Source: a virus. Taken from it: 57,595 nucleotides of DNA. Each line of letters starts with the position of its first letter. Within the stretch, counting starts at the first letter, position 1. The DNA lies in IMG/VR virus record IMGVR_UViG_3300037189_024976, positions 1 through 57,595 of that record; one strand, given 5' to 3'. The position numbers and the translations under genes were made by a program. Under the pieces are notes generated by a model. The model had not been told where the DNA came from. It saw only the letters and a list, made by a program, of their open reading frames with translations, and did no database searches. Positions 14,240 to 32,756 of this stretch are shown piece after piece.

Positions 14240-15370
14240 ATGGCTCTAGCTAAATTAAACCATAATTACCTTGATCCGCTTAAGGTAAGCAATGAAATTG
14301 TTGATGGTATTTTAAGTGTTTCATCTAAATTATCGGTACCATCAATATCAGCCCCTTCAGGAACAGTTTCTATTGTAGGAAATATATCAGCATCAGGAAT
14401 TTTTTCAGGTTCTGGAGCAGGATTAACAAATATCCCTAATGGTGCTTTAACAAATTCATCTGTAACTATTAATGGTACATCTGTATCTTTAGGTGGATCT
14501 ATAAGTATTATTGCTCTTCCCGCCCAATCTGCAGGAACTACAGGATATTATCTTCAATCAAATGGTACATCTGCTTCATGGGTAGCATTAGGACTTGCAG
14601 CACCAGCAGTAGCAGGAACTATGTATGGATACTCTTCATCTCAATTTGCAAATACAGGAGTTGGATACCAAGCTTTACAAAATAATAATGGTGCTTATGC
14701 TACAGCTCTTGGCAATGCAGCGGGATTTTCAAACAACGGATCATGGAATACATTTCTTGGAAATAGTGCAGGTACCATAACATTAAATGGTAGCTATAAT
14801 ATAATTATTGGTGGAAATGTTCAACCATCATCATCTTCAGTAAGTGGAGAAGTTACAATAGGTGATACAAATGTAACATCTTTTAGAATGCCAGGTGTTG
14901 GTATTAACTTTACAAGAACTTCAAACTTAATTCAATCTCAAGCAACAACACAAATTCCTCTTTCTATTCAAGGTATAGCAAGTCAAACTGCCTCTCTTCA
15001 AAATTGGTTAAACTCTGCAGGAACAGTTGTTGGATCCATAGATAACTCAGGTAACTTGGTAGCAGCTGGAGATATTACAACAAACTCTGATTCCCGCCTT
15101 AAAGATAATATTGAAAAAATTACAGATGCTCTTGCAATTGTAGATCAAATTAATGGTGTAACATATAGTCTTATCTCTGATGATAAAAAGATTCGTCACG
15201 TAGGATTAATTGCTCAAGATGTAGAGGCAGTTATGCCAGAAGCAGTTCTTGAAAATGAAAATGGAATCAAATCGGTTGCCTATGGCAACTTGGTTGGACT
15301 GCTGGTAGAAGCCATTAAAGAACTCCGTGCAGAAGTTACAGAATTGCGGGGTATCATAGATGGCATTTAA
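14240..15370 (+). CDS. Fibre or spike protein with C-terminal S74 intramolecular chaperone
   Basis: The 376-residue product has a low-complexity fibre body with GYYLQSNGTSASW and NTGVGYQALQNN/YATALGNAAG repeats, related to the YadA-head-like repeats in the 7463 gene. From about residue 282 it carries the peptidase S74 (endosialidase-type) chaperone domain: SDSRLKDNIEKI, GLIAQDVEAVMPEAV, YGNLVGLLVEAIKELRAEV. In this family the domain trimerises the fibre and then cleaves itself off at the serine of the S-D-x-R-L-K motif, which is present here. The stop overlaps the next start by 11 nt. This is the only S74 domain in the window. Confidence 0.88.
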   Translation: MALAKLNHNYLDPLKVSNEIVDGILSVSSKLSVPSISAPSGTVSIVGNISASGIFSGSGAGLTNIPNGALTNSSVTINGTSVSLGGSISIIALPAQSAGTTGYYLQSNGTSASWVALGLAAPAVAGTMYGYSSSQFANTGVGYQALQNNNGAYATALGNAAGFSNNGSWNTFLGNSAGTITLNGSYNIIIGGNVQPSSSSVSGEVTIGDTNVTSFRMPGVGINFTRTSNLIQSQATTQIPLSIQGIASQTASLQNWLNSAGTVVGSIDNSGNLVAAGDITTNSDSRLKDNIEKITDALAIVDQINGVTYSLISDDKKIRHVGLIAQDVEAVMPEAVLENENGIKSVAYGNLVGLLVEAIKELRAEVTELRGIIDGI

Positions 15371-16661
15371 AGTAGGTTCAACATCTTATTTCCCTGGAGT
15401 ATTTAACTTTCCTTCATCTGCAACAATTGGTGCACCTTTAGAAACTGATGGAAACTCAACATATTTTGCTTATCCAGGACAAACATCAAATAACCCAGGT
15501 ACAGGACTTCAATATAGAAGTATATTAACTCACGGATTTTTGGCGGGAGGCTATAAAGGTTCAAGCCCTTGGCGTTCTGTAAATAAAACATGGCATGCTA
15601 ATGACACTACATTTTTAGTAGGAGATCAAATAGATAGAGCTATGGCATATGGAGATGGAACAACATCTGATTATAATGCTTATGTTCATGGAACTATCAA
15701 TGCTTATTCTGGATCTTCCCCGCACACTTCTTCATATAATCTTCATAATGGAGTTGGTAGACAACGTGGAATGCAGCAATGGGATTATAACGTAAATGCA
15801 ATTTCAACTTCAACAACAGCTGGATATGTAGCACCAGCCTATAATACTGGAATATTTAGACCTACAGGAACATCTTCTGGAGATGGATCTTTTGGTACAT
15901 CATCAGTTCCATTTGGTTATATTGGTCTTGATCCAGCACATGATGGTGCAGGAGTTTCATATGGTAGTCAGATTGAAAATACTGGTAGCACAACTCTTAC
16001 AGATTCAACTCTTTATCAATCAGCAGGTGTTGGTGGATGGGATACAGCAGAAGCCAGAGACTTTCATGGTTGCTCAAATGATCAAATAAACCAAGTTGGA
16101 TATGTACACGGTGGTGGTACATCAGCAACAGATAGACTTCATTTCCCTACAGAAACAATGTACACAACAACATCAGCTCCAGTTACTGCAGGAATGACAA
16201 CTTGTGTTTTTGGAACAAGTTATGCATGGGTAAATTTTGACGGTAATCATCAACAATTTAATTTTAGCAATCAAGCATATACAACATGGAATAACACTTC
16301 AGGATCATCAACAAATGGTCAGGGTGCATGGTATAAAGCTGTTTCAAGTAAATTGGGTCAACACTATGTTGTTGTTGGAGATAATATATTTAAAACTTCT
16401 GATTCTACTGGCAATACAATATCTACATTTGCTAAATCATATACTGGAACATCTGAAGAAAATGGTGAAATGGGGCAGAACTGGGGATATTTTCTTGGAA
16501 ACTATAATGGACAACAAAATAATCAAACTATGAAAATTTATTACACAACAGATAGCTGTGTATCAATAGGTGCAGCGGGAATGCCAAAAGGACACTTTGG
16601 ACAATCTTCAGCAGCATGTTCATTTGCAGCAGCAACTATAACGTCAGGATATCCAGTATAA
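15360..16661 (+). CDS. Tandem paralogue 1 of 3, probable virion protein
   Basis: This 433-residue protein is the first of three consecutive homologues. All begin MAFK and then share THGFLxGGYKxSxPWRSVNKTWHAxDTT near residues 55-85. All end with EENxEMGQxWGYxLGxYxGxQNN and MPKGHxGQSS about 60 and 30 residues from the C-terminus. The middle differs in length and sequence, here with GYIGLDPAHDGAGVSYG. Repeated W/Y/G motifs suggest a beta-propeller or prism. The gene overlaps the S74 gene, so it belongs to the fibre operon. A receptor-binding role is inferred from the diversified centre between fixed ends. I do not recognise a named family. Confidence 0.6.
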   Translation: MAFKVGSTSYFPGVFNFPSSATIGAPLETDGNSTYFAYPGQTSNNPGTGLQYRSILTHGFLAGGYKGSSPWRSVNKTWHANDTTFLVGDQIDRAMAYGDGTTSDYNAYVHGTINAYSGSSPHTSSYNLHNGVGRQRGMQQWDYNVNAISTSTTAGYVAPAYNTGIFRPTGTSSGDGSFGTSSVPFGYIGLDPAHDGAGVSYGSQIENTGSTTLTDSTLYQSAGVGGWDTAEARDFHGCSNDQINQVGYVHGGGTSATDRLHFPTETMYTTTSAPVTAGMTTCVFGTSYAWVNFDGNHQQFNFSNQAYTTWNNTSGSSTNGQGAWYKAVSSKLGQHYVVVGDNIFKTSDSTGNTISTFAKSYTGTSEENGEMGQNWGYFLGNYNGQQNNQTMKIYYTTDSCVSIGAAGMPKGHFGQSSAACSFAAATITSGYPV

Positions 16662-17767
16662 TGGCATTTAAAATAGGCGGAACTCAAATATATCCAGGAA
16701 CTTTACCAACACCTTCAAGTGCTGATCAAGGTTCACCAATGTACAATGATGGAACAAATTATTATTTTGCATATCCAGGTGCAATAAGCACTGTCCCAGG
16801 AACTGGTTGGAGATATCGCACAATTTATACTCACGGATTTTTATGTAATGGATACAAAGGCTCAAATCCATGGAGATCAGTTAATAAAACTTGGCATGCA
16901 ACAGATACTACTTATTATGTTGGAGAGCAAATGGATAGAGCGGGAGCTTATGTAGGTGGTGCATATTCAGATTACAACGGATATATGTTTGGAACAATGG
17001 ATACATTCCAAGGTGCATCTTCTCACGTTTCTTCAATTAATTTACATAATGGTTTGATGAGACAAAATGGACCAGGCACATTTTCTGGAACAGCATCTAA
17101 TTTTGGATATACAGATGCACAAGGTGCAACAGCAGACGTAGGTGGATGGAATCTTTCAGGAACTATAGCTGTTGGTAGTGGAATGACAAATATAACTGGT
17201 CAAGTAGGATATGTTTTGGGCGGTGGAAGAACTGCAATTGATAAATTACATTTTCCTACAGAAATAATGTATGCAACTTCAATAGTGGGTCCTAATACAG
17301 GACAGTCAGTAGCCCCTTGGGGCGGACAAACATATGGTTGGATGCAATATCCATCAGCAGGAAGATATATTACCTGGTCAAATGATTCTATATCTACATG
17401 GGCAGCAGCAACTTCAACTGATGGTCAAAATAAAACTTTGGGATCAAAATATGGATGGGCATATGCGGGAATGGGTGGAAATACTGATTCTAGAATTATG
17501 AAATTTTCAGATTCCACTGGAGCTGCTTTAGCAACACTTTCAAAGCTTAGAGGTTTGGGAGAAGAAAATATGGAGATGGGTCAAGATTGGGGTTATATGT
17601 TGGGTCAATATGATGGACAACAAAATAATCATACAGTTAAAACTCTTTATTCTACAGATGTACAAACTCAAATGGGTTCTGCTTGTATGCCTAAAGGTCA
17701 CGTTGGTCAATCTTCTGGGGATTGTTTTACAGCAGCAGCTACAATAACTTCGGCGGTATCTACATAA
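16661..17767 (+). CDS. Tandem paralogue 2 of 3, probable virion protein
   Basis: This 368-residue protein starts with MAFKIGGTQIYPG at the ATG that overlaps the previous stop as TAATG. A longer reading from an ATG at 16616 is rejected because it lies inside the preceding gene and would destroy the shared MAFK start. It is the shortest of the three homologues because the central region after the MRQNG segment (about residue 122) is reduced. The shared blocks are intact: THGFLCNGYKGSNPWRSVNK, EENMEMGQDWGYMLG and MPKGHVGQSSG. No signal peptide or transmembrane segment is visible. Confidence 0.6.
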   Translation: MAFKIGGTQIYPGTLPTPSSADQGSPMYNDGTNYYFAYPGAISTVPGTGWRYRTIYTHGFLCNGYKGSNPWRSVNKTWHATDTTYYVGEQMDRAGAYVGGAYSDYNGYMFGTMDTFQGASSHVSSINLHNGLMRQNGPGTFSGTASNFGYTDAQGATADVGGWNLSGTIAVGSGMTNITGQVGYVLGGGRTAIDKLHFPTEIMYATSIVGPNTGQSVAPWGGQTYGWMQYPSAGRYITWSNDSISTWAAATSTDGQNKTLGSKYGWAYAGMGGNTDSRIMKFSDSTGAALATLSKLRGLGEENMEMGQDWGYMLGQYDGQQNNHTVKTLYSTDVQTQMGSACMPKGHVGQSSGDCFTAAATITSAVST

Positions 17768-18945
17768 TGGCATTTAAACTTTCTACAACTTCAGTATTTC
17801 CTGGTATATATAATGCACCAACTGCTACAGCAGGCGGAACGCATTTATATTCAAACGGATCAACAACATATTGGAATTATCCAGGTGAAACAAATACATT
17901 AATTAATAACGCAAGCTTTCAATATAGAAGTATAATCACTCACGGATTTCTTTTAGGCGGATACAAAAACTCTAATCCTTGGCGTTCAGTTAACAAGACA
18001 TGGCATGCAACTGACACTACCTATTATGTTGGAGAACAAATGGACAGAGCAGGCGGGTATTTTGATGGTTTTTGGTCAGATTACAATGCGTATGGACTAG
18101 GTACATTTTTAAATGAATCATATACATGTTGCTCAAACTCAGGAGGAACAGTTCATACATCTTCAATCAATTTACATACTGGGTCTGCAAGAACAAGGGG
18201 TTACGGAACATTTGGATCGGGAACAGCTCCAAATTTTGGATATATTGGAGATAACCCAACTGCACAAGGTGTAACATACGGATCTGGATATGCAGCAGAA
18301 GGAACCGCAACACCAGGTGTTGGTGGATGGGATATGTCTGTTCCACGACACACACACGGAGCAATAACAGATCAAGTAGGTCAAAAAGGATACGCAATTG
18401 GTGGCGGTTATGCTGCAGTAGATAAAATGGATTTTGCTACAGAAGTTATGTATACCACAACATCTGCACCATTTTCTACAGGAGCTGGAACTGGTGGAAT
18501 GGGTCAAACTTATGGATGGGCAGTAAACGCTGGAACGGGATACAAACTTACATTCTCAAATGATTCATGGGTTACATGGTCACAACCAGGATCCGATGGT
18601 TATAGAAAGTTTTTGTGTACTAAATTGGGATATTTTTATATTGGAACTGGCGGAAACGTTACTTTGGGCTGGGCACAAGTAAATGATACAACAGGTGCAT
18701 CAATCACAACATTTAATGGTATATCCACCATAGGTGAAGAAAACCTTGAAATGGGACAAAGTTGGGGATACATGCTTGGAAACTATAATGGTAATCAAAA
18801 TAATATGACATGGAAGTTTACTTATTCAAACAATGCTGTAACAGCTATGGGTACAACAACTATGCCAAAGGGACATAATGGACAATCTTCTGGTTTTTGT
18901 GCATCCGCAGCAGCTTCAGTAACTGCTACAAGATACGGTGCATAG
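17767..18945 (+). CDS. Tandem paralogue 3 of 3, probable virion protein
   Basis: This 392-residue protein begins MAFKLSTTSVFPG at the TAATG junction with paralogue 2. It carries the common blocks (THGFLLGGYKNSNPWRSVNK, EENLEMGQSWGYMLG, MPKGHNGQSSG). In the centre it has a CCSNSGG cysteine pair absent from the others, and a GYIGDNPTAQGVTYGSGY stretch shared with paralogue 1 (GYIGLDPAHDGAGVSYG). It ends the operon: a gap with a new extended -10 follows. Three homologues in one operon may form a hetero-oligomer or provide alternative binding specificities. Both ideas are inference. Confidence 0.6.
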   Translation: MAFKLSTTSVFPGIYNAPTATAGGTHLYSNGSTTYWNYPGETNTLINNASFQYRSIITHGFLLGGYKNSNPWRSVNKTWHATDTTYYVGEQMDRAGGYFDGFWSDYNAYGLGTFLNESYTCCSNSGGTVHTSSINLHTGSARTRGYGTFGSGTAPNFGYIGDNPTAQGVTYGSGYAAEGTATPGVGGWDMSVPRHTHGAITDQVGQKGYAIGGGYAAVDKMDFATEVMYTTTSAPFSTGAGTGGMGQTYGWAVNAGTGYKLTFSNDSWVTWSQPGSDGYRKFLCTKLGYFYIGTGGNVTLGWAQVNDTTGASITTFNGISTIGEENLEMGQSWGYMLGNYNGNQNNMTWKFTYSNNAVTAMGTTTMPKGHNGQSSGFCASAAASVTATRYGA

Positions 18946-18989: not shown

Positions 18990-19934
18990 ATGACTGATGA
19001 AACAAATACAAATGATTTGAGCGTTCCATCGCCATATACAGATACTCCTGCATCAGCAGTTGTTTCTACAGATCCCGCAACACCAGTTGCTCCACCTACA
19101 CCTCCAACTATGAAGTATTTAATCATGCGTCAAAGCATGGTTAATGATTTCCTTCATGGGGATGGACACGGGGATATAAATTTAACATGTACAGATGTTT
19201 ATTCAATTTATGATATTGTTTGTGTAAAGATAAGTAGCACGTTATACAACACCTTCAGGCCACAATGGACTGGCAAAGTATTAGAGATAGATGAAGAGAC
19301 TGCTATTTATGGTGCAGCATTCTTCTCTGAAATTCGTCCTGAAGGTAAGATGTGGGAAGCAAAGATGCCACATTATCAAAATACTAAGTCCTCAGTTAGC
19401 TATACAGATAGCGTAGCAGATCAAATTCCACTTAAAAAGATTCCTGTTGTTATTACTCCAGAAATTGAAGAAAAAGTTGTTAAGTTTATGTACATGTTTG
19501 CTAAGATGATTATTGAAGTAGAATTTAATGATAGATATCATGAAATGGTTGACGTATCAACACTAGAGCAAGAATCGTGGGATGTTCAAAAGCACGAAGC
19601 ACAAGAATTCTTAAATAACCCAGAAACTGCATATACTCCATTCCTAGATTATATAGTTCAAGAAAGAGGAATAGAAGATAAAGCAGCTTTCTGTCAAAAA
19701 ATATTAAAAAAGTCAGAAGACTATTATGACAATCTTTCCAAGCTCCTAGTAGATTTTCAAAGACTACTTAAAGCAGCAGAAGGATGTAAAACAATTTGGG
19801 ACATGAATATGTTCTATGAATTCCACTTTGGCATATTAATGCCTCAAAGCCAGGCAATTCAACTAGGTTTAACAGTTAGCGATACCGATTGGAATAGAAA
19901 AGTAGAGGTCAAAGCACATGCATTCAACTTCTGA
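18990..19934 (+). CDS. Hypothetical protein with proline-rich N-terminus
   Basis: This 314-residue soluble protein starts with an acidic, Ser/Thr/Pro-rich leader (residues 1-38, ending ATPVAPPTPPT). A mixed alpha/beta domain follows, with FLHGDGHGDINLTCTDVYSI near residue 52, and then a mainly helical, Lys/Glu-rich second half. It is the first gene of the transcription unit started at 18958 and overlaps the next gene by 17 nt. No catalytic or nucleotide-binding motif is visible. Together with the next gene it may be a structural or assembly pair. I do not recognise a family. Confidence 0.5.
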   Translation: MTDETNTNDLSVPSPYTDTPASAVVSTDPATPVAPPTPPTMKYLIMRQSMVNDFLHGDGHGDINLTCTDVYSIYDIVCVKISSTLYNTFRPQWTGKVLEIDEETAIYGAAFFSEIRPEGKMWEAKMPHYQNTKSSVSYTDSVADQIPLKKIPVVITPEIEEKVVKFMYMFAKMIIEVEFNDRYHEMVDVSTLEQESWDVQKHEAQEFLNNPETAYTPFLDYIVQERGIEDKAAFCQKILKKSEDYYDNLSKLLVDFQRLLKAAEGCKTIWDMNMFYEFHFGILMPQSQAIQLGLTVSDTDWNRKVEVKAHAFNF

Positions 19935-20826
19935 CAATATTGTGGAACAAGCCACAATAATTACAGATGAAAGCAATTTAGTTTCTGGAAATATAGTATC
20001 AAGTGATTTAAATACAATTAACATTTCAGGACAATTTATAGAAAAATACGATTTACAAGGTTATGATATTGATTTAATTAAACAATCAGTTTTGTCTAAT
20101 AATGGACAAACAGATTTTCAATCAAAGTATTTTGTTGCTAATTCTCAAATTACTCCTTATAAGAAGGTAAGACAAGCATTAATGGAACTTGAAGTTCGTT
20201 ATCATGCTTATTTTGAGATTAACAATAGTCTAAAGAAAGCAGAGATTATTGATAAGAAGTTTGCCAGAGATATCGAAGCTAACTTAGATGCGGGACTTGA
20301 TCTAGAAGCAGAAATGTTAAAGATTGATAAAGATAAGAATCTTTATGACATTACAATCTGGAAGCGTAAGATGAGACAATCTGAAATTGAAATCAAGACC
20401 TTCCTAGATATTATCAAAGAGCATGCACCAGATCAAGATAGTTTAGAATATTTTTTAAGAGATAATCCAGAAGAAGAACGCAAGTATTGGATACTTAGAA
20501 TGGGTAAGCAAGCTGCAATGGATATTCTTTCATTTGGTCGTTTAGGAACTGGAAATATGGATTCAATTGCCATGATGGATAGAGAAGATCAGATTGAAAC
20601 TTTAACAGTAGCAATTCAATATTCAGGTATTGTAAATGCAAATGTAGCAGCAATTAGCGATAGTGTTCAGAAGCAAGTGAATGAACTTATTGCAGCAAAT
20701 CAACTAGAATTACCACTAATAGAAGACGGGTTAGAAGAAACAGCATCAAATGTTTTCAGTGCCATTGAATCCAAAGTTAACGGAGAAAGACTTTCAGAAC
20801 TTCCTGGAGTTTCTCAAGCGGAATAA
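19918..20826 (+). CDS. Hypothetical mainly helical protein
   Basis: This 302-residue protein starts inside the end of the previous gene. A Ser/Asn/Ile-rich N-terminus of about 40 residues is followed by long amphipathic helices, for example KKVRQALMELEVRYHAYFEI, AEIIDKKFARDIEANLDAG and DITIWKRKMRQSEIEIKTFL, and a region with LGTGNMDSIAMMDREDQIET. It resembles a coiled-coil structural or assembly protein. The next gene starts 77 nt before its stop in another frame, an unusually long overlap. No enzymatic motif was recognised. Confidence 0.5.
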   Translation: MHSTSDNIVEQATIITDESNLVSGNIVSSDLNTINISGQFIEKYDLQGYDIDLIKQSVLSNNGQTDFQSKYFVANSQITPYKKVRQALMELEVRYHAYFEINNSLKKAEIIDKKFARDIEANLDAGLDLEAEMLKIDKDKNLYDITIWKRKMRQSEIEIKTFLDIIKEHAPDQDSLEYFLRDNPEEERKYWILRMGKQAAMDILSFGRLGTGNMDSIAMMDREDQIETLTVAIQYSGIVNANVAAISDSVQKQVNELIAANQLELPLIEDGLEETASNVFSAIESKVNGERLSELPGVSQAE

Positions 20827-22414
20827 AGATCTAATATACGATTTTTATTTTACATGCCGTATCCCCCCATTTAGTCAAGATGCTATGGGGGATACGTTTA
20901 AAAATGAAGAAGACCACAATTATCTTATTGGAATGGCTACATATGTCCAAGAGGTTACTGGTATTACCGCTTCCGCCGTATTTAACAATATTGAAGTAAG
21001 ACCTTCACAACAAAACCTAGACCTATGGATAGAAAGCTTTAAACCCGTCTATGAGGCTGGAATAAGATCTGTCACAATACCCCATACACATTGGGTGTCT
21101 ACAGGTCAAATACAAGCAAGTTTTCCAGAGTTATTTATAAAGAACACAATCCTCAGAAATGTATCAGAGCCAAGAGATATTGAAAAGCTTGCAAAAGCAG
21201 GATTTAATTATATTAATCTTGATAGAGATTTGATGAGAGATCACGAAAAACTTTTAAGGTTTAAAAAAGCTAAAGAAAAGTACGGAGTTAAACTTTCATT
21301 ATTGGCAAACGAAGGCTGTGCTGGCGGTTGTATTATGATGGATGAACATTATCAGTTTAATAATACAAGAATCTCTACAACCCCGCAATACTTTAATGAT
21401 CCAATCAGTCGTGTATCTTGTCCAAAGTGGGATCATGAAGATCCCGCAATGCCCCTTAAAACAGCTAATTTTCCCCCTTGGAAGGCTGACTGGGACGAGT
21501 TCTTAAATGACCTAGGCATAGATGTTATAAAGATGCATGGGCGGGAATCTACAAGTAGACTCCGTGAAACCATGGACATAATTGATAAGTACAGAGAAGG
21601 TCACGAAATCTTGTTTGAATCATTTAAGGGTTTCTTAGAAGAAACAAATCTAGCAGATAAGCCTATTGATGTATGGCGTAATAAGATTAAAAATTGTAAG
21701 TTTGACTGCTGGGATTGTGGTTTTTGCGATAAGATTTATAATGCTAAATATGGCAAGACTCAAGATCCTATTGTGATGCAAGTCACACAAGAACTAGTTG
21801 ATTCTGTAAACAGAAGAGTAGAACTTGATATTCCAGGATTAACTAGTACTAGAGTGCAATCACTTATAAATGGACTTGCTGGAAAGCTCGGATCATATTT
21901 AGAGGTTGGCTCATATCTCGGATCTACTGGAGCAGCAGCATTAAAAGATAATAGTATAAAAGCTTATTTTGTAGACAATTGGAAAGAAGATGTGACACCC
22001 GTTACACAAGATGGCATTAACATTGTTGAGAATAAGAAAGATAAGTTTATCAATAATATTAAACCATATATCAAAGGCAACGATGTTATGCTCTTTGATT
22101 CTCATATGTTTGCTGTAAATACATCTGATATTAAAGATGTAAAGTTTTTCTTTTACGATGGTCCCCACGATCCTGTTAATACAGCAAATGCAGTACAATA
22201 TTATAAAGATTGTCTTGCTGATACCGCCGTTATTATATTTGATGATGCAAATTGGGACGGGGTTGTAAAAGGTGCAGCAGATGGTATTAAGAAAGCAGGA
22301 TTAAGTATACTGTATTCAAAAATGGTCCTTAACGACATTGAATCTGAAAAAGATTGGTGGAATGGGCTTTATATAGTGGTAGTTACAAAGGAGAAATTAG
22401 ATGCCATCACTTAA
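20750..22414 (+). CDS. Fusion of a U32-like TIM-barrel domain with a class I methyltransferase-like domain
   Basis: The 554-residue protein has two halves. Residues about 25-330 resemble peptidase U32-type TIM barrels: YDFYFTCRIPPFSQDAMGD at the start, GFNYINLDRDLM and VKLSLLANEGCAGGCIMMDE (C-x3-C near residue 190). The half closes with a cysteine cluster CKFDCWDCGFC (about 316-326), suited to an iron-sulphur cluster. Residues about 365-545 resemble a class I methyltransferase: GSYLEVGSYLGSTGAAAL as the glycine-rich loop, an acidic FVDNW strand end, FFFYDGPHD and AVIIFDDANWDG. Members of U32 include RNA-hydroxylating and ubiquinone-hydroxylating Fe-S proteins as well as peptidases, so the reaction is uncertain. 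The start is set by overlap with the previous gene. Confidence 0.55.
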   Translation: MFSVPLNPKLTEKDFQNFLEFLKRNKDLIYDFYFTCRIPPFSQDAMGDTFKNEEDHNYLIGMATYVQEVTGITASAVFNNIEVRPSQQNLDLWIESFKPVYEAGIRSVTIPHTHWVSTGQIQASFPELFIKNTILRNVSEPRDIEKLAKAGFNYINLDRDLMRDHEKLLRFKKAKEKYGVKLSLLANEGCAGGCIMMDEHYQFNNTRISTTPQYFNDPISRVSCPKWDHEDPAMPLKTANFPPWKADWDEFLNDLGIDVIKMHGRESTSRLRETMDIIDKYREGHEILFESFKGFLEETNLADKPIDVWRNKIKNCKFDCWDCGFCDKIYNAKYGKTQDPIVMQVTQELVDSVNRRVELDIPGLTSTRVQSLINGLAGKLGSYLEVGSYLGSTGAAALKDNSIKAYFVDNWKEDVTPVTQDGINIVENKKDKFINNIKPYIKGNDVMLFDSHMFAVNTSDIKDVKFFFYDGPHDPVNTANAVQYYKDCLADTAVIIFDDANWDGVVKGAADGIKKAGLSILYSKMVLNDIESEKDWWNGLYIVVVTKEKLDAIT

Positions 22415-23318
22415 CATACTATTCGAAGAATGGTATTACATTTTAATGCTTGGAACCGTATTGGTTCTTTCATATTATGCACGTAAATATGACGTGTTTC
22501 AACCTCTTTATGCATTTATTGCAAAGAGAATAAAATCAAAAAGAGCAGTAATTGCTCTTACATCAGCCATTTCTGGAGTTCTTCCAATTAATGGTCGTGT
22601 AGTTATTTCTGCTGGAGTTTTAAATACATTAGCACCAGTACACGGAGATGAGCGTAGAAAGAAGTATGGAGTTATTGATTATTTAGCAACTCATCATTTC
22701 TATTTTTGGTCTCCTCTAGAAAAAACAGTTATTCTGCCAATGGCAGCACTTAATATTGGATACTGGTCATTTCTAGGATCAACATGGCCATTACTTGCAA
22801 CAGTAGCCGTATGCACCCTATGGTATATCTTTGGAAAGATCAAGGAAGATGACGTAGAAATTAATGTTAGATCAAGGCGGGAAGTTCAAAAGCTAGACAC
22901 AAAAGCTATTGTAAAAGACAATATAATCACACTGCTTATTGTAACTGGACTTTTGGTTCTTGGTAATTTTGTTGGATATCATAGAGACGCTATTGCAAGT
23001 GCTTTAGGTAATGGACAAAATTCATCATTTTTGATTGTTGCATTAATTGGCTCATTTGTACTTTCATTCATTCTTGGGAGTAGCGGAAAATTTGCAGGAG
23101 TTCTTGGAATCCTTCTTCCAATTTATGGTCAAATGTATCTTCCAATTCTTTTTGCAGTTAATTGGGCGGGATATATATTGTCCCCTATGCATAAGTGCAT
23201 GATAATTGGTAAGCGTATTTTTGGCTCAGATTTTAAAGACTATTACAAGGTATTAGTTGGAGTAGTTGCAGCAGTAATAGCCGTGGCCCTGGTTCATACA
23301 TATACAACTGGATTATAA
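22401..23318 (+). CDS. Polytopic integral membrane protein, possible transporter of the DUF401/ion-transporter type
   Basis: This 305-residue protein has about eight hydrophobic stretches, including WYYILMLGTVLVLSYYA, RAVIALTSAISGVLPINGRV, TWPLLATVAVCTLWYIFG, NIITLLIVTGLLVLGNFVG, FLIVALIGSFVLSFILGSSG and VLVGVVAAVIAVALVHTY. Re-entrant-like loops GVLPINGR and GSSGKFAGVLG are symmetrically placed in the two halves, as in ion-transporter-superfamily carriers. It overlaps the end of the U32-like gene by 14 nt, so both are probably expressed together in the infected cell. It is too large and too polytopic for a holin. The substrate is unknown. Confidence 0.55.
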   Translation: MPSLNILFEEWYYILMLGTVLVLSYYARKYDVFQPLYAFIAKRIKSKRAVIALTSAISGVLPINGRVVISAGVLNTLAPVHGDERRKKYGVIDYLATHHFYFWSPLEKTVILPMAALNIGYWSFLGSTWPLLATVAVCTLWYIFGKIKEDDVEINVRSRREVQKLDTKAIVKDNIITLLIVTGLLVLGNFVGYHRDAIASALGNGQNSSFLIVALIGSFVLSFILGSSGKFAGVLGILLPIYGQMYLPILFAVNWAGYILSPMHKCMIIGKRIFGSDFKDYYKVLVGVVAAVIAVALVHTYTTGL

Positions 23319-24131: not shown

Positions 24132-25061
24132 ATGACTAAAAACCATGCGGGAATCAATAGATATATTGGAAATCCAACAGTAAGTTCTGGTACAGCAAAA
24201 GGCATTTTTAAAATGCAAGATCAGCTGGGACTTAATGCAAATTCCGCATGGGTTAAAGATGGACTTTCTGCTGCAACAGCGGGAATTTCTGCAGTACAGC
24301 TTAAAAATGATTTTGGATATAACACGGACGGTGCCTATTGGATTAATTTGCCAAATGTTGGTCCAACACAAATTTATTGCATAATGAACTCGGCTTATGA
24401 TGGCGGGGGATGGATGATGGCAATGAAAGCAACAACAGGAACAACTTTTTCCTATAGTGCAAATTATTGGACAACAACAAATACATTAAACCCAACAGAT
24501 GTTACAAGAAATAATGCTGATGCAAAATATCACACTTTTAATTATTTTAAAGCAAAAGATTTGCTTGCAATTTGGCCTGATATAACCACAGGAACAGGCG
24601 GAAGTATAACTGGGCAAGGCGTTTGGACATGGCTAGAGAATAATTTTTATGTTAATTCAAATAGAATAGAGCCTGTTAATTTTTTTAATTCAAACGTAGG
24701 CGTTGGCAGTACTTCTGGAGGAACAGGTTACTTCAAAAGAGATGCTAAAACTTTTTCTGGTTGGGGTTCTGGAGTATTTAGTAGTCAAGTAGATGTTAGA
24801 TTTTATGGATTTAATTATTATCCTTTCCCAGGATACTCGGTTTCTGGAGGAGTAAGGTGGGGATTTGGTTGGAATGAAAACGGTGAAGGATTGTGGCCTA
24901 GCTTAGCCCCAGTACCAATTTATTTAGGCTCTAATGACGTATCTGGTGGAATTGGTATGGACACAGGTTTCGGAAGCTATTCTGCAGGTGATAAAATTAG
25001 TTGTTGTCAAGATACGACGGGAATTAATAGATCTGCCCGAGTAGAGGTGTATGTTAGATAA
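24132..25061 (+). CDS. Fibre protein with fibrinogen-related lectin domain
   Basis: The 309-residue protein has a short N-terminal part (NHAGINRYIGNPTVSSGT) and a fibrinogen C-terminal-like domain from about residue 55. Typical elements are DGAYWINLPNVGPTQIYCIM and GGGWMMAMKATTG, then SANYWTTTNTLNP and a FNYFKAKDLLAIWP segment, and late Gly/Trp-rich strands (GGVRWGFGWNENGEG). The family binds acetylated or other sugars in animals (ficolins, intelectins) and occurs in some phage fibres. No strong ribosome-binding site precedes ATG 24132, so coupling to the upstream gene is likely. The sugar ligand is unknown. Confidence 0.75.
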   Translation: MTKNHAGINRYIGNPTVSSGTAKGIFKMQDQLGLNANSAWVKDGLSAATAGISAVQLKNDFGYNTDGAYWINLPNVGPTQIYCIMNSAYDGGGWMMAMKATTGTTFSYSANYWTTTNTLNPTDVTRNNADAKYHTFNYFKAKDLLAIWPDITTGTGGSITGQGVWTWLENNFYVNSNRIEPVNFFNSNVGVGSTSGGTGYFKRDAKTFSGWGSGVFSSQVDVRFYGFNYYPFPGYSVSGGVRWGFGWNENGEGLWPSLAPVPIYLGSNDVSGGIGMDTGFGSYSAGDKISCCQDTTGINRSARVEVYVR

Positions 25062-26422
25062 TGGCTAATAACAGAAGAATAGGCATATACGCACCATTAG
25101 GACCATTATTTACATATGAGTCAACTGGAATTTGGCAAGAAGAAGATTTATATGCATTCACTAAAAGAACTCCAATACAAGATGGATTACAATTTTATAT
25201 AGATCCCAATTTAAGACCTACTAATATTTATGGAACCGATTTAAGTGGCAATGGCAGAAATATTTTAAATTGGAATAATTATTACGGACAACCTGGAGCA
25301 GGTACATATGGTAATGTTTTTAGATTTTTGCCTGGATATAATGCTCTTTTTCAAATTCCAAGTTTTGGATCTTTTTATACACAAGGAACAATATCTTTTT
25401 GGATGAACTCCACAGATGTAAGCAATTATAGAAATCCAATACATTCACATTTTCAAGGGTCAAATGTTGGTTTTAGATTTGAACAAGCTGGAACAACTGG
25501 TTCAAGTGGAACAATGGGAATGTTATTTGGTACTGACGCAGGCACACTAACAAGTCATCAATTTGGCTCCATCTCATCCGACACCTGGTATCAAATTACT
25601 GTAACTTGGAACACATCTACAAACTTAGCTATTGGCTATGTAAATGCATCTCAAGTTTTTAATGAATCTAATACAACATGGCCTACACAAATTCCTTCTC
25701 TTACAGTTGGCAATGGATTTTCTTCAAGTCCAGAAAGATTTTATAGCGGTAGTATTGGAGCAGTAATGCTTTATAATCGTGCACTATCAGCTGCTGAAGT
25801 TGCACAAAACTATTCTGTTTTTAATGGAATATACGGAACTATTTCAACAAATGTTCCAAACACACCAACAATAGGTACTGCTACAAGAACAAGTAATACA
25901 ACGGTAAGTTTATCGTATACAGACTCAGCAATTACAGGCGGAAGATTAATACAAGGACACTATGTTCTTTCTTCTCCAATTACTAATATTACTGTAACGT
26001 CACAAGGCAATCCACTGACAGTAACGGGATCATTTGTACAAGGAACTGCATATCAATTTACAGTAAATGCATATAATCAAAATGGATATAGTACGATGTC
26101 AACAGCATCAAATCAAGTTACCCCTTATGCTGCTGCAGTGACCCCACCTGTTACACCACCTGTTACCCCACCTGTTACCCCACCTGCAGTAACCCCACCT
26201 GTTACACCACCTGCAGTAACCCCACCTGTTACCCCACCTGCAGTAACCCCACCTGTTACCCCACCTGTTACACCACCTGTAACCCCACCTGTTACACCAC
26301 CTGTTACACCACCTGTTACCCCACCTACAGGTTGCGATTGCGTAACCAATTGTTTCAGCAGTGTTACTTGTTGCCGTAGTTGCGGAGGAATTGTTTCTGG
26401 AGGACGTTGCGTAGCTTGTTAA
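25061..26422 (+). CDS. LamG/Fn3 lectin-type fibre protein with VTPP stalk and cysteine-rich tail
   Basis: The 453-residue protein overlaps its predecessor as TAATG. Residues about 35-265 form a concanavalin A-like (LamG) domain: GLQFYIDPNLR, DLSGNGRNI, GTISFWMNS, WYQITVTWNTSTN, YSGSIGAVMLYNRALSAAEV. Residues about 267-357 look like a fibronectin type III domain. Residues 360-422 are 15 VTPP tetrapeptides, three preceded by Ala, forming an extended proline-rich stalk. The last 31 residues hold eight cysteines (CDC, C, CC, C, C, C), probably a disulphide knot or metal site. LamG domains bind glycans, so the protein probably binds a surface sugar. Confidence 0.78.
   Translation: MANNRRIGIYAPLGPLFTYESTGIWQEEDLYAFTKRTPIQDGLQFYIDPNLRPTNIYGTDLSGNGRNILNWNNYYGQPGAGTYGNVFRFLPGYNALFQIPSFGSFYTQGTISFWMNSTDVSNYRNPIHSHFQGSNVGFRFEQAGTTGSSGTMGMLFGTDAGTLTSHQFGSISSDTWYQITVTWNTSTNLAIGYVNASQVFNESNTTWPTQIPSLTVGNGFSSSPERFYSGSIGAVMLYNRALSAAEVAQNYSVFNGIYGTISTNVPNTPTIGTATRTSNTTVSLSYTDSAITGGRLIQGHYVLSSPITNITVTSQGNPLTVTGSFVQGTAYQFTVNAYNQNGYSTMSTASNQVTPYAAAVTPPVTPPVTPPVTPPAVTPPVTPPAVTPPVTPPAVTPPVTPPVTPPVTPPVTPPVTPPVTPPTGCDCVTNCFSSVTCCRSCGGIVSGGRCVAC
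26138..26326 (+). repeat. Tandem 12-bp repeat encoding VTPP
   Basis: Fifteen copies of a 12-bp unit (consensus GTTACCCCACCT, with GTTACACCACCT and GTAACCCCACCT variants) encode VTPP; three copies are preceded by a GCA alanine codon. The reading frame is maintained throughout. Copy number may vary between isolates by slippage. The antisense strand is open only as a by-product of the repeat. Confidence 0.95.
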
Positions 26423-26951: not shown

Positions 26952-27941
26952 ATGTCAAAAATAATAATATCTATAATAGCTTATAAAGAAAAAGATTTAA
27001 AAGGAACAGTTTTAAGTGCATATAATAATGCTAAAAACAAAGAAAATTTATATTTTTCTATTGTTGAAGAAGATGAAGAAAGCAATTATTCAGATCTTAG
27101 CTTTATCCCAGAAAATCAAATTGTATATAGAAAGTTTGATTTGTCTGAATATAGAGGTATTTTGTGGGCAAGAAATTTAACAACTAAAGTTGATTTTGAT
27201 TATGATTACATACTTTATATTTGTGGTCATACACTTTTTGCAGAAAATTGGGATGAAACATGCCTTTATGAATACAAAAAAGCTTTATTAAAATCTGAAA
27301 AACCAATCATTACATATTGTGGTCCAGATTATGAAGTTGCAGAAGATGGATCTATTAAAATACATGATACACAATTAAATATAGAAGAAAACTTATATCA
27401 CCCACAAATATCTGAAGGATTTATTCCAGGTTTTTGGTTTCCAAACTCTACTCATCCTCCAAAAGATGGTGATGTTCATGAAGGATATTGGGTTCATTTT
27501 ACTTGGTGTTTTGCGGATAAATCTTTTGTTCAAGAAGTACCGCTTGATCCAGAAATGAATTTTAATGGAGAAGAACCTTATGTAACAGTACAAGCATGGT
27601 GCAGGGGCTGGAGATTTTTTGTAACACCTGAAATTCTATACTGGCACAATACAGTAAAGAAATATCCAGGAGAAGAAAAACCAAGATACCTTACTCACAG
27701 ACCGTGGATGGATAAAAATAAAAAAGATTATTGGAATAATTCAGATCAATCTATGATTAAATTAAACTTACTGCTGTCTGGAAATCTTAAAGGAATTTAT
27801 GGGGACATATCAAAAGAACAGGTTGTAGAATTTTGTTTAGCTAGTGGTATGGATGTTAAATATACAGAGTATAACCCTGAATATCATAAAACAGAAGGTT
27901 ATCAACACTGCGTATATCATAGAAATGAAGATCCAGTTTAA
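26952..27941 (+). CDS. Glycosyltransferase, GlcNAc-transferase (GT2-fold) type
   Basis: The 329-residue protein starts with a GT-A nucleotide-binding pattern (IIISIIAYKEKDLKGTVLSA). The middle contains WARNLT and DYDYILYICGHTLFAENWDE. A later region has HFTWCFADKSFVQEVPLDP, FNGEEPYVTVQAWCRGW and TPEILYWHN, as in the GlcNAc-transferase family found in phages and protists. The classical DxD is modified to a DYDYI stretch and a CGHT loop. It is cytoplasmic, with no membrane segment. It is followed directly by an SGNH-like enzyme (TAAATG junction), which suggests a sugar-decoration pathway. Acceptor and donor are unknown. Confidence 0.75.
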   Translation: MSKIIISIIAYKEKDLKGTVLSAYNNAKNKENLYFSIVEEDEESNYSDLSFIPENQIVYRKFDLSEYRGILWARNLTTKVDFDYDYILYICGHTLFAENWDETCLYEYKKALLKSEKPIITYCGPDYEVAEDGSIKIHDTQLNIEENLYHPQISEGFIPGFWFPNSTHPPKDGDVHEGYWVHFTWCFADKSFVQEVPLDPEMNFNGEEPYVTVQAWCRGWRFFVTPEILYWHNTVKKYPGEEKPRYLTHRPWMDKNKKDYWNNSDQSMIKLNLLLSGNLKGIYGDISKEQVVEFCLASGMDVKYTEYNPEYHKTEGYQHCVYHRNEDPV

Positions 27942-28862
27942 ATGATATTGGATGGATTATCTGATGAAGATATCCAATTTTTTGGATCAAATAATTTTTT
28001 TCAATTTGGTTTTAAATCTAGATTTGGTTTTGAAACTATTAGGGAAGATAATCTTTTTATAGCAAGTCCAAATATAGAATATAAATACAATAGCATGGGA
28101 TATCGGTCTCAAGAATTTTCACCAAAATGTAATATTTTAATATCTGGGTGTTCACATTCTTTTGGATTAGGAGTTCCTCAAAATGAAACTTGGGCTGATA
28201 TTTTATCAAAAAATATAAATAGTGAATATCAAAATATTTCTGTAGTAGGCGGAGCAATTAATACTATTGTGCAAAATATTTTTGCTTATATTAAAAAATT
28301 TGGAAATCCAAAAAATATTTTTATTCTTTTTCCAGATTTAAATAGAATACATTTACCAAACATCAATAATATTTTAAATAATGAAAATTATTTTGGGTTT
28401 AATTTTGCATATGCAAATGAATTTGGATCAGATGTAGCATCAGAAAGACCTAAATTTTCTAAAATTCCTCATAAAATAAGTGATGTATTTCCAAATGAAT
28501 CAATCTTATATATAAATTGTCATTCAATATTAAATTTAGAAATGTATTGTAAAGAAGCTGGGATTAACTTAATATATTCTATTTGGGGCAAAAATTCAAT
28601 TAATATTATTAAAAAAATTAAAGAAAAAAACAAACAATCATTTTTAAATTTTATAGAAGTTGATATTTATAAATTTAAAAGATATAACAGTCTAGAAAAA
28701 ACTAATATAGATGATCCAGAATGTCATCAAGAGTATAAAGATATTTGGGGAGAAAGATATTTTTATGCGGAAGATCATTATAAAAATTATATTGGTCATT
28801 TTAATTCACACATGCATATGCATATTGCTGAATCTTTTTTAAAGGAAAATAATGATTACTAA
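27942..28862 (+). CDS. SGNH/GDSL-like hydrolase or acyltransferase
   Basis: This 306-residue protein has an SGNH block I variant ILISGCSHSFG, with Ser71 as candidate nucleophile. It has a GGAINTI segment in the place of block II and ends with HFNSHMHMHIAESFL, which may supply the catalytic His and an acidic or Asn partner. The family removes or transfers acyl groups on sugars. The gene is markedly more AT-rich than its neighbours, with many AAA, AAT and ATT codons, which suggests separate acquisition. It is flanked by a glycosyltransferase and a carbamoyltransferase. The fold assignment rests on short motifs. Confidence 0.6.
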   Translation: MILDGLSDEDIQFFGSNNFFQFGFKSRFGFETIREDNLFIASPNIEYKYNSMGYRSQEFSPKCNILISGCSHSFGLGVPQNETWADILSKNINSEYQNISVVGGAINTIVQNIFAYIKKFGNPKNIFILFPDLNRIHLPNINNILNNENYFGFNFAYANEFGSDVASERPKFSKIPHKISDVFPNESILYINCHSILNLEMYCKEAGINLIYSIWGKNSINIIKKIKEKNKQSFLNFIEVDIYKFKRYNSLEKTNIDDPECHQEYKDIWGERYFYAEDHYKNYIGHFNSHMHMHIAESFLKENNDY

Positions 28863-28938
28863 TATAAAATATTATTTAGAAAAAATTATTAGAAAAATTT
28901 TTAAAAAAAATAAAAATAAGAAAGATTATATATATTAA
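28852..28938 (+). CDS. Very small basic peptide gene (28 residues)
   Basis: A short frame starts at ATG 28852, preceded by AAAGGAAAA, overlaps the end of the SGNH-like gene by 11 nt, and ends at TAA 28936-28938. Its last base is the first base of the next ATG (TAATG). The peptide begins MITNIKYYLEKIIRKIF and continues with a run rich in Lys and Asn. It fills the gap between two coupled genes and may mainly keep ribosomes flowing to the carbamoyltransferase. It could also be the decayed end of a longer gene. Confidence 0.4.
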   Translation: MITNIKYYLEKIIRKIFKKNKNKKDYIY

Positions 28939-30362
28939 TGATTATTTTAGGAATTAATGAAACATCTCATGATGCCTCTGTTTCTTTAATTAAAGATAGC
29001 AAAATTCTTTTTGCTGGTCATGCTGAAAGATATAGTAAAGAAAAAAATGACTGGTATGTTAATAATAGTTTAATTAGTGATGCTTTGCAGTATGGGGTAC
29101 CTGATGCCATAGCTTATTACGAAAAACCTTTTTTGAAAGCCTCCAGACTGTTTTTAAAAGGTGGATCTGGTGACTGGAAGCCAAGATTTAATATAAAAGA
29201 AATACCTAGAAAATCCTTTAGCCATCATTATTCTCATGCTGCTGCAGGATATTATACAAGCTCTTTTAATGATGCTGTTATTGTTGTTCTTGATTCTATT
29301 GGCGAATACAATACTTCCACAATATGGGTTGGTGAGGGGAATAAAATAAGGTTGAAATATAAGCAAAACTACCCAGTTAGTTTTGGATTATTTTATTCTG
29401 CATTTACAAAACTAATCGGACTTATGCCCAACCAGGAAGAATATATTATGATGGGGATGGCTGCATATGGAGATTGGAAAAAATACTATAGAAAAGTTGA
29501 TGACTATTTTCCTTCCTATACAAAACAAAAATATAACTTTCATAAAGGAATTACTGATTGGGGATGGATTGAATCTGAGCAAGATAAATTTGATATAGCA
29601 GCAGCAGTTCAAGTTGTGTACCAACAAAGACTTAATGATTTTATGCACATGGCATATTCAATAACTGGTAAAAAGAATTTGGTATTTATGGGTGGATGTG
29701 CACTCAACTCATCAGCCAACACATTACTATGGAATATATTTGATATGATTTGGATTATGCCAAACCCAGGCGATGCGGGTAGCTCTTTAGGAGCAGCAGC
29801 AGCATTATACGGAAGACATTTGGACTGGAAGACACCTTATCTTGGCTATGATCTTAAGGGTGAATATCCAGTTGACAAAATAATTGACGGTATATTAAAA
29901 GATGGGGTTGTAGCGGTAGCAACAGGTAGAGCAGAGTATGGCCCTAGGGCTCTTGGCAACAGAAGTATATTAGCAGATCCTAGAAACACATCTATTAAAG
30001 ATAAAGTTAATCTAATTAAACAAAGAGAGCTTTTTAGACCATTTGCACCAGTTGTTATGGAAGAGTTTGCAGATAAATGGTTTGATATGGACTTTGCCTC
30101 TCCGTATATGCAATACACAGTTAAATGTTTAAAACCAGATTTAATCCCCGCCGTTGTTCATAAAGATGGGACTTCAAGAGTTCAAACTGTAAATAAAAAT
30201 CAACACTCAGGGCTTTATTCCGTATTGTCTGAATGGTATAAATTAACTGGTATCCCAGTTCTTTTGAATACTAGTTTAAACATAAAAGGTCAACCAATGA
30301 TTAATGATATTTATGATGTAAAGGCGTGGGAAAAACAATATAATTGTAAAATACTTATGTGA
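28938..30362 (+). CDS. Carbamoyltransferase of the NodU/CmcH/TobZ family
   Basis: The 474-residue protein starts with MIILGINETSHDASVSL, the nucleotide-binding start of this family. It has the metal-binding HHYSHAAAGYY near residue 93, FMGGCALNSSAN near residue 250, and the C-terminal-domain signature ATGRAEYGPRALGNRSILADPR near residues 327-348. The end (LLNTSLNIKGQPM) is typical but finishes somewhat earlier than cellular relatives. The family transfers a carbamoyl group from carbamoyl phosphate via an adenylate to hydroxyls of sugars or secondary metabolites. Its TGA stop forms part of the next extended -10. It sits with a glycosyltransferase and an SGNH-like enzyme, so the target is probably a sugar. 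Confidence 0.9.
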   Translation: MIILGINETSHDASVSLIKDSKILFAGHAERYSKEKNDWYVNNSLISDALQYGVPDAIAYYEKPFLKASRLFLKGGSGDWKPRFNIKEIPRKSFSHHYSHAAAGYYTSSFNDAVIVVLDSIGEYNTSTIWVGEGNKIRLKYKQNYPVSFGLFYSAFTKLIGLMPNQEEYIMMGMAAYGDWKKYYRKVDDYFPSYTKQKYNFHKGITDWGWIESEQDKFDIAAAVQVVYQQRLNDFMHMAYSITGKKNLVFMGGCALNSSANTLLWNIFDMIWIMPNPGDAGSSLGAAAALYGRHLDWKTPYLGYDLKGEYPVDKIIDGILKDGVVAVATGRAEYGPRALGNRSILADPRNTSIKDKVNLIKQRELFRPFAPVVMEEFADKWFDMDFASPYMQYTVKCLKPDLIPAVVHKDGTSRVQTVNKNQHSGLYSVLSEWYKLTGIPVLLNTSLNIKGQPMINDIYDVKAWEKQYNCKILM

Positions 30363-32417: not shown

Positions 32418-32756
32418 ATGGGAAAAATGAAAATCACCCCAATTGATGAAGTTAACTGGGGATTATATATGTGGCAGATGCCAGACGAATCTCTGGTTAT
32501 GGATGATGAAGGTGGACACCTTTGCATCCCGTCGCTTAAAGGCGACATTCGTCAGATACAAAAGCTTAGAAGAGCTGCAAGAGAATATGGTGTTGATGAA
32601 GGTCAGCCTATTTTTTTTGCAGGACACAGACAGGTAACTGATGAAGAATTAGTTGAGCAAAGACAAAGAGCAGATCTAGGACTTGTTCCAGATCCACAAG
32701 ACTTACCAGCAATGATGGAATTTATTAAAGAACAAAGGGAAATGGGTATAGCGTAA
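32418..32756 (+). CDS. Conserved small phage protein upstream of portal
   Basis: This 112-residue acidic protein contains IDEVNWGLYMWQMPDESLVM, DDEGGHLCIPSLKGDIRQIQ, GVDEGQPIFFAGHRQVTDEE and QRADLGLVPDPQDLPAM. I recall similar proteins just before portal genes in actinobacteriophages, without a known role. ATG 32418 or ATG 32427 could be the start; the latter is preceded by GGGAAA. It overlaps the portal start as TAATG and so is coupled to it. A head-assembly role is inferred from position. It is not a terminase: no Walker motif or nuclease motif is present. Confidence 0.6.
   Translation: MGKMKITPIDEVNWGLYMWQMPDESLVMDDEGGHLCIPSLKGDIRQIQKLRRAAREYGVDEGQPIFFAGHRQVTDEELVEQRQRADLGLVPDPQDLPAMMEFIKEQREMGIA

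What the first reader, a model, noticed from the sequence alone, without database searches (positions are those of the whole stretch)
20750..22414. Fusion of a U32-like Fe-S type domain with a methyltransferase-like domain in a structural gene neighbourhood
The first half has U32-like TIM-barrel motifs and a C-x3-C plus C-x4-C-x2-C-x2-C cysteine set. The second half has a glycine-rich SAM-type loop and a DDANWDG strand. U32 relatives include O2-independent hydroxylases of RNA and quinones. A two-step modification (hydroxylation then methylation) of RNA, cofactor or protein by one phage enzyme would be new to me.
Basis: partly seen in the sequence, partly recalled or inferred. Interest (0 to 1): 0.7.

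Follow-up and report, generated by a model that had tools for sequence, protein, structure and literature searches.

The report
Phage fibre-linked hydroxylase–methyltransferase fusion enzyme
Many aquatic phages carry, beside their tail-fibre genes, one enzyme that looks built to add an oxygen to a molecule and then cap it with a methyl group; its job is not known, and it may be how these phages chemically finish their host-binding fibres.

Summary
The ORF at 20750-22414 (554 aa) is real and has two domains. The first half is a TIM barrel whose best solved match by VIA-align is the U32 protein Mk0906, tied to the U32 family through intermediate sequences. Seven cysteines are invariant in 105 of 105 sequences but do not form the canonical U32 motif. 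The second half is a Methyltransf_24-type O-methyltransferase with conserved SAM and metal-site residues. The two halves are joined in 165 of 167 loci; the other two run off their contigs. The family (phrog_1458, T4-GC 354) has no assigned function. It travels with a 'sericin-like' fibre gene and T4-GC 353: 123 phage records each and 76 of 76 loci with enough flank. Relatives of the first half lie beside chorismate mutase in some T4-like phages, and beside DAHP synthase or an O-methyltransferase in a few bacteria. Best reading: a C–H to C–OCH3 enzyme, Fe-S and probably prephenate-dependent, serving the fibre module. Cluster, chemistry and substrate are inferred.

The parts
20750..22414 (+). 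U32-like / O-methyltransferase fusion protein, 554 aa (phrog_1458, T4-GC 354)
20750..21763 (+). N-terminal U32-like TIM-barrel domain, residues 1-338
   Evidence: AF2 model; VIA Z 17.5 to 5d88; HMM link to L170-L178
21317..21331 (+). NE-x-C190-x3-C194, aligned by MAFFT with the first two canonical U32 cysteines
21419..21421 (+). C224, aligned by MAFFT with the third canonical U32 cysteine
21695..21727 (+). C316-x3-C320-x2-C323-x2-C326, extra C-terminal cysteine run of this subfamily
21833..22411 (+). C-terminal class I O-methyltransferase domain, residues 362-554
   Evidence: Methyltransf_24 27.2 bits vs cut-off 26.3; fold matches
21902..21922 (+). SAM-binding loop E385-x-G387-x3-G391
   Evidence: G387 and G391 in 105 of 105, E385 in 99 of 105, D in the other 6
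22157..22252 (+). putative metal site: D470, D498, D499, N501
   Evidence: D470 105 of 105; others 104 of 104 with letters; aligned with FIDA and TDN of TrmR
15360..18942 (+). three tandem 'sericin-like' fibre-type genes (15360-16658, 16616-17764, 17722-18942); the first two were scanned and hit phrog_1417
   Evidence: family present in 76 of 76 distinct loci with >=6 kb upstream
18990..19934 (+). T4-GC 352-like neighbour (phrog_1604), unknown function
   Evidence: 61 of 76 loci
19918..20826 (+). T4-GC 353 neighbour (phrog_1409), unknown function
   Evidence: 76 of 76 loci
22401..23318 (+). DUF401-like membrane protein, frequent downstream partner
   Evidence: DUF401 40.8 bits vs cut-off 24; 49 of 70 loci

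Best explanation
A bifunctional modifying enzyme of a mobile phage tail-fibre module. The N-terminal U32-type TIM barrel, probably carrying an Fe-S cluster on C190, C194 and C224 plus one or more of the C-terminal cysteines, hydroxylates a substrate without O2, most likely with prephenate as oxygen donor. The fused, probably metal-dependent O-methyltransferase then methylates the new hydroxyl with SAM (C-H to C-OH to C-OCH3). The likeliest substrate is the fibre protein it travels with (an aromatic side chain, or a group attached to it), with T4-GC 353/352 as assembly partners. Shown: both folds by prediction, conserved residues, the fusion, linkage to the fibre gene. Inferred: cluster, prephenate, metal, reaction order, substrate.
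For: Fold: 5d88 (U32 Mk0906) is the top VIA match of the lone domain, Z 17.5, rmsd 3.2, 223 aligned; next is MTHFR at Z 14.2, rmsd 4.5. Sequence chain: the N-domain profile hits bacterial proteins at E 4e-7 to 8e-32, and one of them, L175, is PF01136 at 57.7 bits against a cut-off of 22.4. The A2-A7 profile match is 99.9%, E 3.7e-34, with the cysteines aligned. Seven Cys invariant, 105 of 105. MTase: 28 of 32 members match Methyltransf_24, and SAM and metal-site residues are conserved. Fusion: 165 of 167 loci (duplicated contigs included); the other two are cut by contig ends. Linkage: fusion gene, 353 and fibre each in 123 of 50,697 phage records with the same name tallies; 76 of 76 distinct loci. 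Prephenate hint: a CM_2 chorismate mutase within two genes of the same U32 subfamily in 3 of 4 T4-like regions read. Methylation hint: an O-methyltransferase (PF00891 in the one scanned) directly upstream of bacterial relatives in 3 of 34 loci, all among the 6 closest. S-SM1, with no T4-GC 351-354 annotated in the stretches read, has 2OG-Fe(II) oxygenases and a leprecan-like gene at the syntenic spot.
Against: No direct PF01136 hit, and the direct profile match to four E. coli U32 enzymes is only 2.6%. In Foldseek's own ranking MTHFR chains stand above 5d88. The canonical CX6CX15CX3/4C motif is not met. C224 and C316-C326 lie in low-confidence stretches of the models. A DAHP synthase is near only 3 of 34 bacterial relatives; 13 of 34 instead have a reductase-like gene of a fatty-acid-type set nearby (labels by eye). 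The gene after the U32 gene in RB69 has no CM_2 hit. No chorismate mutase was found among the 12 window proteins scanned with Pfam; the rest were not scanned. 2OG oxygenases co-occur with the fusion gene in three isolates, so they do not simply replace it. Fibre tyrosine enrichment is slight (5.9% against 4.5%). That the fibre is the substrate rests on linkage alone.
Confidence: 0.4

Rival explanations
1. RNA-modifying fusion: the U32 domain makes 5-hydroxyuridine (TrhP-like) and the methyltransferase turns it into 5-methoxyuridine (TrmR-like) in host tRNA.
For: TrmR is the only solved sequence hit of the methyltransferase profile below E 0.01 (full-sequence E 4.8e-4, domain E 0.0057). trhP1/trhP2 and YrrM (TrmR) act in series in B. 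subtilis (PMC6599085, passages).
Against: By fold TrmR (Z 15.2) stands slightly below TomG, MycF and COMT (16.3-16.6). The gene is locked to a fibre gene, and the window's portal resembles Streptomyces phages while its other carriers among isolates are cyanophages. ARAGORN found no tRNA gene in the window. The link from the N domain to TrhP is only indirect.
Confidence: 0.17
2. Glycan enzyme: it modifies sugars on the fibre or receptor; the methyltransferase is a sugar O-methyltransferase like MycF.
For: MycF is tied at the top of the methyltransferase fold matches (Z 16.4). The window has a GlcNAc-type glycosyltransferase and a carbamoyltransferase 4.5-8 kb downstream.
Against: Families of those two genes lie within eight genes of the fusion in 2 and 0 of 166 loci; characterised U32 oxidases act in ubiquinone synthesis and on RNA bases (PMC11574389, passages).
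Confidence: 0.15
3. DNA or nucleotide hypermodification, as suggested for the U32 gene by its place in the arabinosyl-5-hydroxycytosine cluster of T4-like phages.
For: Same U32 subfamily beside dCMP-hydroxymethylase-like or thymidylate-synthase-like genes in 4 of 4 T4-like regions read, and near chorismate mutase in 3 of 4.
Against: The family here sits in fibre modules; 5-hydroxycytosine synthesis is credited in print to a thymidylate-synthase relative (PMC13390438, passages).
Confidence: 0.1
4. The U32 half is not a redox enzyme: its cysteines hold structural metal and it serves as a scaffold or folding partner for the fibre, with only the methyltransferase active.
For: The cysteine motif departs from the catalytic U32 motif; strict co-occurrence with the fibre could reflect a chaperone.
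Against: N187, E188, H200, H263 and R265 of the barrel are as invariant as the cysteines, and the N half is better conserved than the methyltransferase (mean column identity 69% against 46%).
Confidence: 0.13

Closest known systems
phrog_1458 / T4-GC 354 (cyanophage hypothetical proteins)
   Same: Same protein over its full length, about 42-46% identity to the isolates listed
   Different: No function assigned; five isolate annotations read here start about 42-46 residues in and lose the first barrel strand
U32 hydroxylases (TrhP, RlhA, UbiU-UbiV)
   Same: Barrel fold by comparison with 5d88; three of the four cysteine columns align with TrhP and RlhA in a MAFFT alignment
   Different: Fourth canonical Cys missing, extra CX3CX2CX2C run, fused methyltransferase, no direct profile match
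U32-type 'peptidase' of T4-like phages (RB69ORF050c)
   Same: Same U32 subfamily with a similar cysteine set
   Different: Stands alone, in a DNA-modification gene cluster, in three of four regions near chorismate mutase; profile A2 does not hit it directly
TrmR (YrrM) tRNA 5-hydroxyuridine O-methyltransferase
   Same: Only solved sequence hit under E 0.01 of the methyltransferase profile
   Different: Partial coverage (profile 63-155 of 186); other O-methyltransferases score as well or better by fold

Membership tests
Peptidase_U32 (PF01136) superfamily | Match to the Pfam profile | tested here: not met
   No hit for the window protein at E<=1, for any of 32 members at E<=1, or in the window at E<=10
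Peptidase_U32 (PF01136) superfamily | Homology through intermediate sequences that are themselves members | tested here: met
   Profile A2 hits L175 and L176, which score 57.7 and 31.1 bits to PF01136, cut-off 22.4; L170, L172 and L177 do not
Peptidase_U32 (PF01136) superfamily | TIM-barrel fold like Mk0906 (5d88) | tested here: met
   Top VIA match, Z 17.5, rmsd 3.2, 223 aligned; runner-up family Z 14.2; rank 10 by Foldseek E-value
U32 oxidases / hydroxylases | Four-cysteine motif CX6CX15CX3/4C | tested here: not met
   CX3C, C, CX3CX2CX2C instead; motif as stated in PMC6747719 (passages)
U32 oxidases / hydroxylases | Bound [4Fe-4S] cluster | not testable with these tools
   No coordinates or bench data
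U32 oxidases / hydroxylases | Prephenate dependence | not testable with these tools
   Only gene-neighbour hints in relatives
Methyltransf_24 (PF13578) | Profile score over the curated cut-off | tested here: met
   27.2 bits against 26.3; 28 of 32 members match at E<=1
Methyltransf_24 (PF13578) | Intact SAM loop and metal-site acids (residue roles recalled) | tested here: met
   G387, G391, D409, D470 in 105 of 105; D498, D499, N501 in 104 of 104 with letters
TrmR tRNA methyltransferases | Closest relative among O-methyltransferases | tested here: inconclusive
   Best sequence hit but not best by fold: Z 15.2 against 16.3-16.6 for TomG, MycF, COMT
phrog_1458 / T4-GC 354 | Full-length sequence homology | tested here: met
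   E 5.1e-171; 123 records; label T4-GC 354 in P-HM2, S-ShM2, P-SSM4

The most novel reading that the evidence does not exclude
A one-chain O2-independent methoxylase, and a U32 enzyme that works on a virion protein, both of which would be firsts as far as the papers I could search show: a mobile fibre module brings its own Fe-S hydroxylase-methyltransferase to finish the fibre, at a locus where another cyanophage keeps O2-dependent 2OG-Fe(II) hydroxylases, so phages could make modified fibres with or without oxygen.
Probability: 0.28. Interest if true: 0.82.

Novelty: new variant of a known kind. Interest (0 to 1): 0.6.

Why it matters
U32 enzymes are a young class of O2-independent hydroxylases, characterised on RNA and in ubiquinone synthesis. 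A U32-like domain fused to an O-methyltransferase that could use its product, with a cysteine set unlike the catalytic one, and tied to a phage fibre gene in every locus with enough flank, would extend the class to a new substrate type. It would also expose a chemical maturation step of phage adhesins, with a simple mass-spectrometry test.

Tried and rejected
Direct Pfam, NCBIfam and PADLOC annotation of the N half gave nothing useful. Direct profile match to E. coli U32 enzymes failed. Plasmids held no match to the whole protein (E<=0.01) or to L176 (E<=1e-5). The two hits in MAG contigs look like phage DNA: one by its gene order in L188, the other by identity only. Exactly 123 records were found for each of three genes, but I did not compare the sets row by row. 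Tyrosine content of the fibre was examined and is only weakly raised. A 902-aa reading of L070 was an artefact of an alignment that crossed a stop codon; the next gene follows in frame. Neighbour order 352-353-354 is not universal: 18 of 76 loci, 353-352-354 in 40, other in 18. Counts over 166 or 167 loci hold contigs fetched twice; one search keeps one locus per distinct DNA sequence of the gene (110 of 166; 76 with >=6 kb upstream, 8 of these isolates). Bacterial neighbour counts are per locus held (35 fetched, 34 with a U32 gene detected; many short contigs), and the gene labels there are by cluster, with Pfam run on single members only. A second phylum gave only 2 of 292 genomes with a match, one of them the phage-like contig. 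The window's lineage was judged from one protein, the portal. Papers: searches listed no report that I recognised as naming this fusion's function; the library holds open-licence papers only, and two papers on 5-hydroxycytosine in phage DNA were not held.

Full report
What is there. Window 20750-22414, + strand, is one ORF of 554 codons. It is phrog_1458 (E 5.1e-171), labelled T4-GC 354 in cyanophage records. tblastn finds it in 123 of 50,697 phage records, all cyanophages by name, and 121 of these are covered over at least 80% of the query. In the eight isolate regions read where the gene is annotated it is a 'hypothetical protein'; in P-SSM3 no gene is annotated there.

First half. Pfam finds no family in residues 1-338 of the window protein. 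The AlphaFold model of that part (mean pLDDT 78.6, pTM 0.80) matches 5d88, the U32 protein Mk0906, best of the 1000 chains compared by VIA-align: Z 17.5, rmsd 3.2, 223 residues; the next family, MTHFR, has Z 14.2 and rmsd 4.5. In Foldseek's own list MTHFR chains rank above 5d88, which is tenth, so the barrel alone is not decisive. Sequence supports it: profile A2 matched 9 of 400 genomes of one phylum (one of them the phage-like contig itself), with E down to 8e-32, and 2 of 292 of another (again one phage-like). Of the relatives scanned, L175 and L176 pass the PF01136 cut-off, while L170, L172 and L177 do not. Profile A2 against these relatives: 99.9%, E 3.7e-34; they against four E. coli U32 enzymes: 78%, E 1.7e-5; A2 against E. 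coli directly: 2.6%. I therefore call it U32-like, a distant branch of the superfamily.

Cysteines. In 105 of 105 distinct sequences of at least 480 aa C190, C194, C224, C316, C320, C323 and C326 are invariant, as are N187, E188, H200, H263, G264 and R265. In a joint alignment C190, C194 and C224 share columns with the first three canonical U32 cysteines; the fourth is missing, and the CX3CX2CX2C run is shared only with the bacterial branch and, in part, with T4-like phage homologues. The aligner may be steered by the cysteines themselves. Published U32 hydroxylases use CX6CX15CX3/4C (PMC6747719, passages; PMC11574389, passages). So the test for the catalytic motif fails, while the position of three ligands appears to be kept. 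Whether the cysteines meet in space could not be tested, and C224 and C316-C326 lie in stretches of low model confidence.

Second half. Residues 384-499 score 27.2 bits to Methyltransf_24, cut-off 26.3, and 28 of 32 members match it. The SAM-loop glycines, D409 and the acids D470, D498, D499 with N501 are conserved in every row that has letters there; E385 is D in 6 of 105. The profile's only solved hit under E 0.01 is TrmR, the tRNA 5-hydroxyuridine methyltransferase (E 4.8e-4, domain E 0.0057). By fold TomG, MycF and COMT-type enzymes are tied at Z 16.3-16.6 and TrmR is a little lower at 15.2, so the substrate class cannot be read from this. That the aligned acids bind metal in COMT, MycF and TrmR is recalled.

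Fusion. 165 of 167 loci with the first half have a match to the second in the same frame; the other two run off the contig. P-SSM3 is split into two frames, with part of the second half in each. The 167 include contigs fetched twice.

Linkage. The 353 gene and the fibre-type gene were each found in 123 of 50,697 records, with the same tallies of names as the fusion: 77, 38 and 8; the sets were not compared row by row, and many are near-identical isolates. A neck-protein control finds 378 Synechococcus and 61 'Cyanophage' records, so the module is optional. After removal of duplicates, 76 of 76 loci with 6 kb upstream hold the fibre family and 353, 61 of 76 hold 352, and 49 of 70 with 2 kb downstream hold the DUF401-like membrane gene. 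In S-ShM2 the fusion lies about 6 kb from 353, yet both are kept. The window's portal is 56% identical to that of Streptomyces phages, whereas the isolates that carry the module are cyanophages: on this one window, the module seems to cross phage lineages.

Hints of chemistry. The same U32 branch is a lone gene, often called 'peptidase', in T4-like phages (302 records matched the bacterial query, 134 of them Escherichia). In three of four regions read (Klebsiella, Serratia, Yersinia phages) a CM_2 chorismate mutase lies within two genes downstream; in RB69 only the next gene was scanned, without a hit. Chorismate mutase makes prephenate, which TrhP needs (PMC6599085, passages). These regions also carry sugar-type and thymidylate-synthase-like genes. 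In Mosigvirus such a cluster is tied to arabinosylated 5-hydroxycytosine, and the hydroxylation is credited to the synthase-like enzyme (PMC13390438, passages), so the U32 role is open. In bacteria a DAHP synthase is near 3 of 34 relatives (PF00793 in the two scanned) and an O-methyltransferase (PF00891 in the one scanned) directly upstream of 3 of 34, all three within the six relatives closest to the phage domain; 13 of 34 instead have a reductase-like gene of a fatty-acid-type set nearby. In S-SM1, between the fibre genes and denV, two 2OG-Fe(II) oxygenases and a 'leprecan' gene are annotated where P-SSM4 has 351-354, with a third oxygenase two genes after denV; I read 20-45 kb and 60-110 kb of S-SM1 and saw no 351-354 label there. 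Other phages hold both kinds of gene.

Reading. I favour a two-step C-H to C-OCH3 enzyme that serves the fibre module. My own step estimates: U32-like fold 0.9, active O-methyltransferase 0.8, Fe-S cluster 0.7, hydroxylase 0.55, the two steps on one molecule 0.5, fibre as substrate 0.4. The strongest point is the linkage; the weakest is the substrate.

Noticed in passing
window 32756-34342: The portal protein is closest (56% identity) to Streptomyces phages of about 126-131 kb, not to cyanomyoviruses, so the window mixes an actinophage-like head gene with a cyanophage-like fibre module.
   Followed up: partly
L207:8113-8355, L208:7975-8316, L209:8312-8602: Three T4-like phages carry a small CM_2 chorismate mutase next to or near a U32-family gene in a sugar/thymidylate-synthase-like cluster; this suggests a prephenate-dependent step that the passages I could read do not mention.
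   Followed up: partly
   Followed up: partly
L083:9139, L085:9127, L086:9139, L088:9127, L089:9139: Five public cyanophage annotations of this gene start about 42-46 residues inside the conserved region and drop the first barrel strand.
   Followed up: yes
window 26952-30359: A GlcNAc-type glycosyltransferase and a carbamoyltransferase lie downstream, hinting at decorated surface glycans.
   Followed up: partly
window 22401-23318: A phage-borne DUF401-like membrane protein is a frequent downstream partner of the fusion gene (49 of 70 loci).
   Followed up: partly
window 25061-26422: A lectin-like (Laminin_G_3) protein with a weak Fn3 match below cut-off, a long VTPP repeat and a Cys-rich tail.
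   Followed up: no
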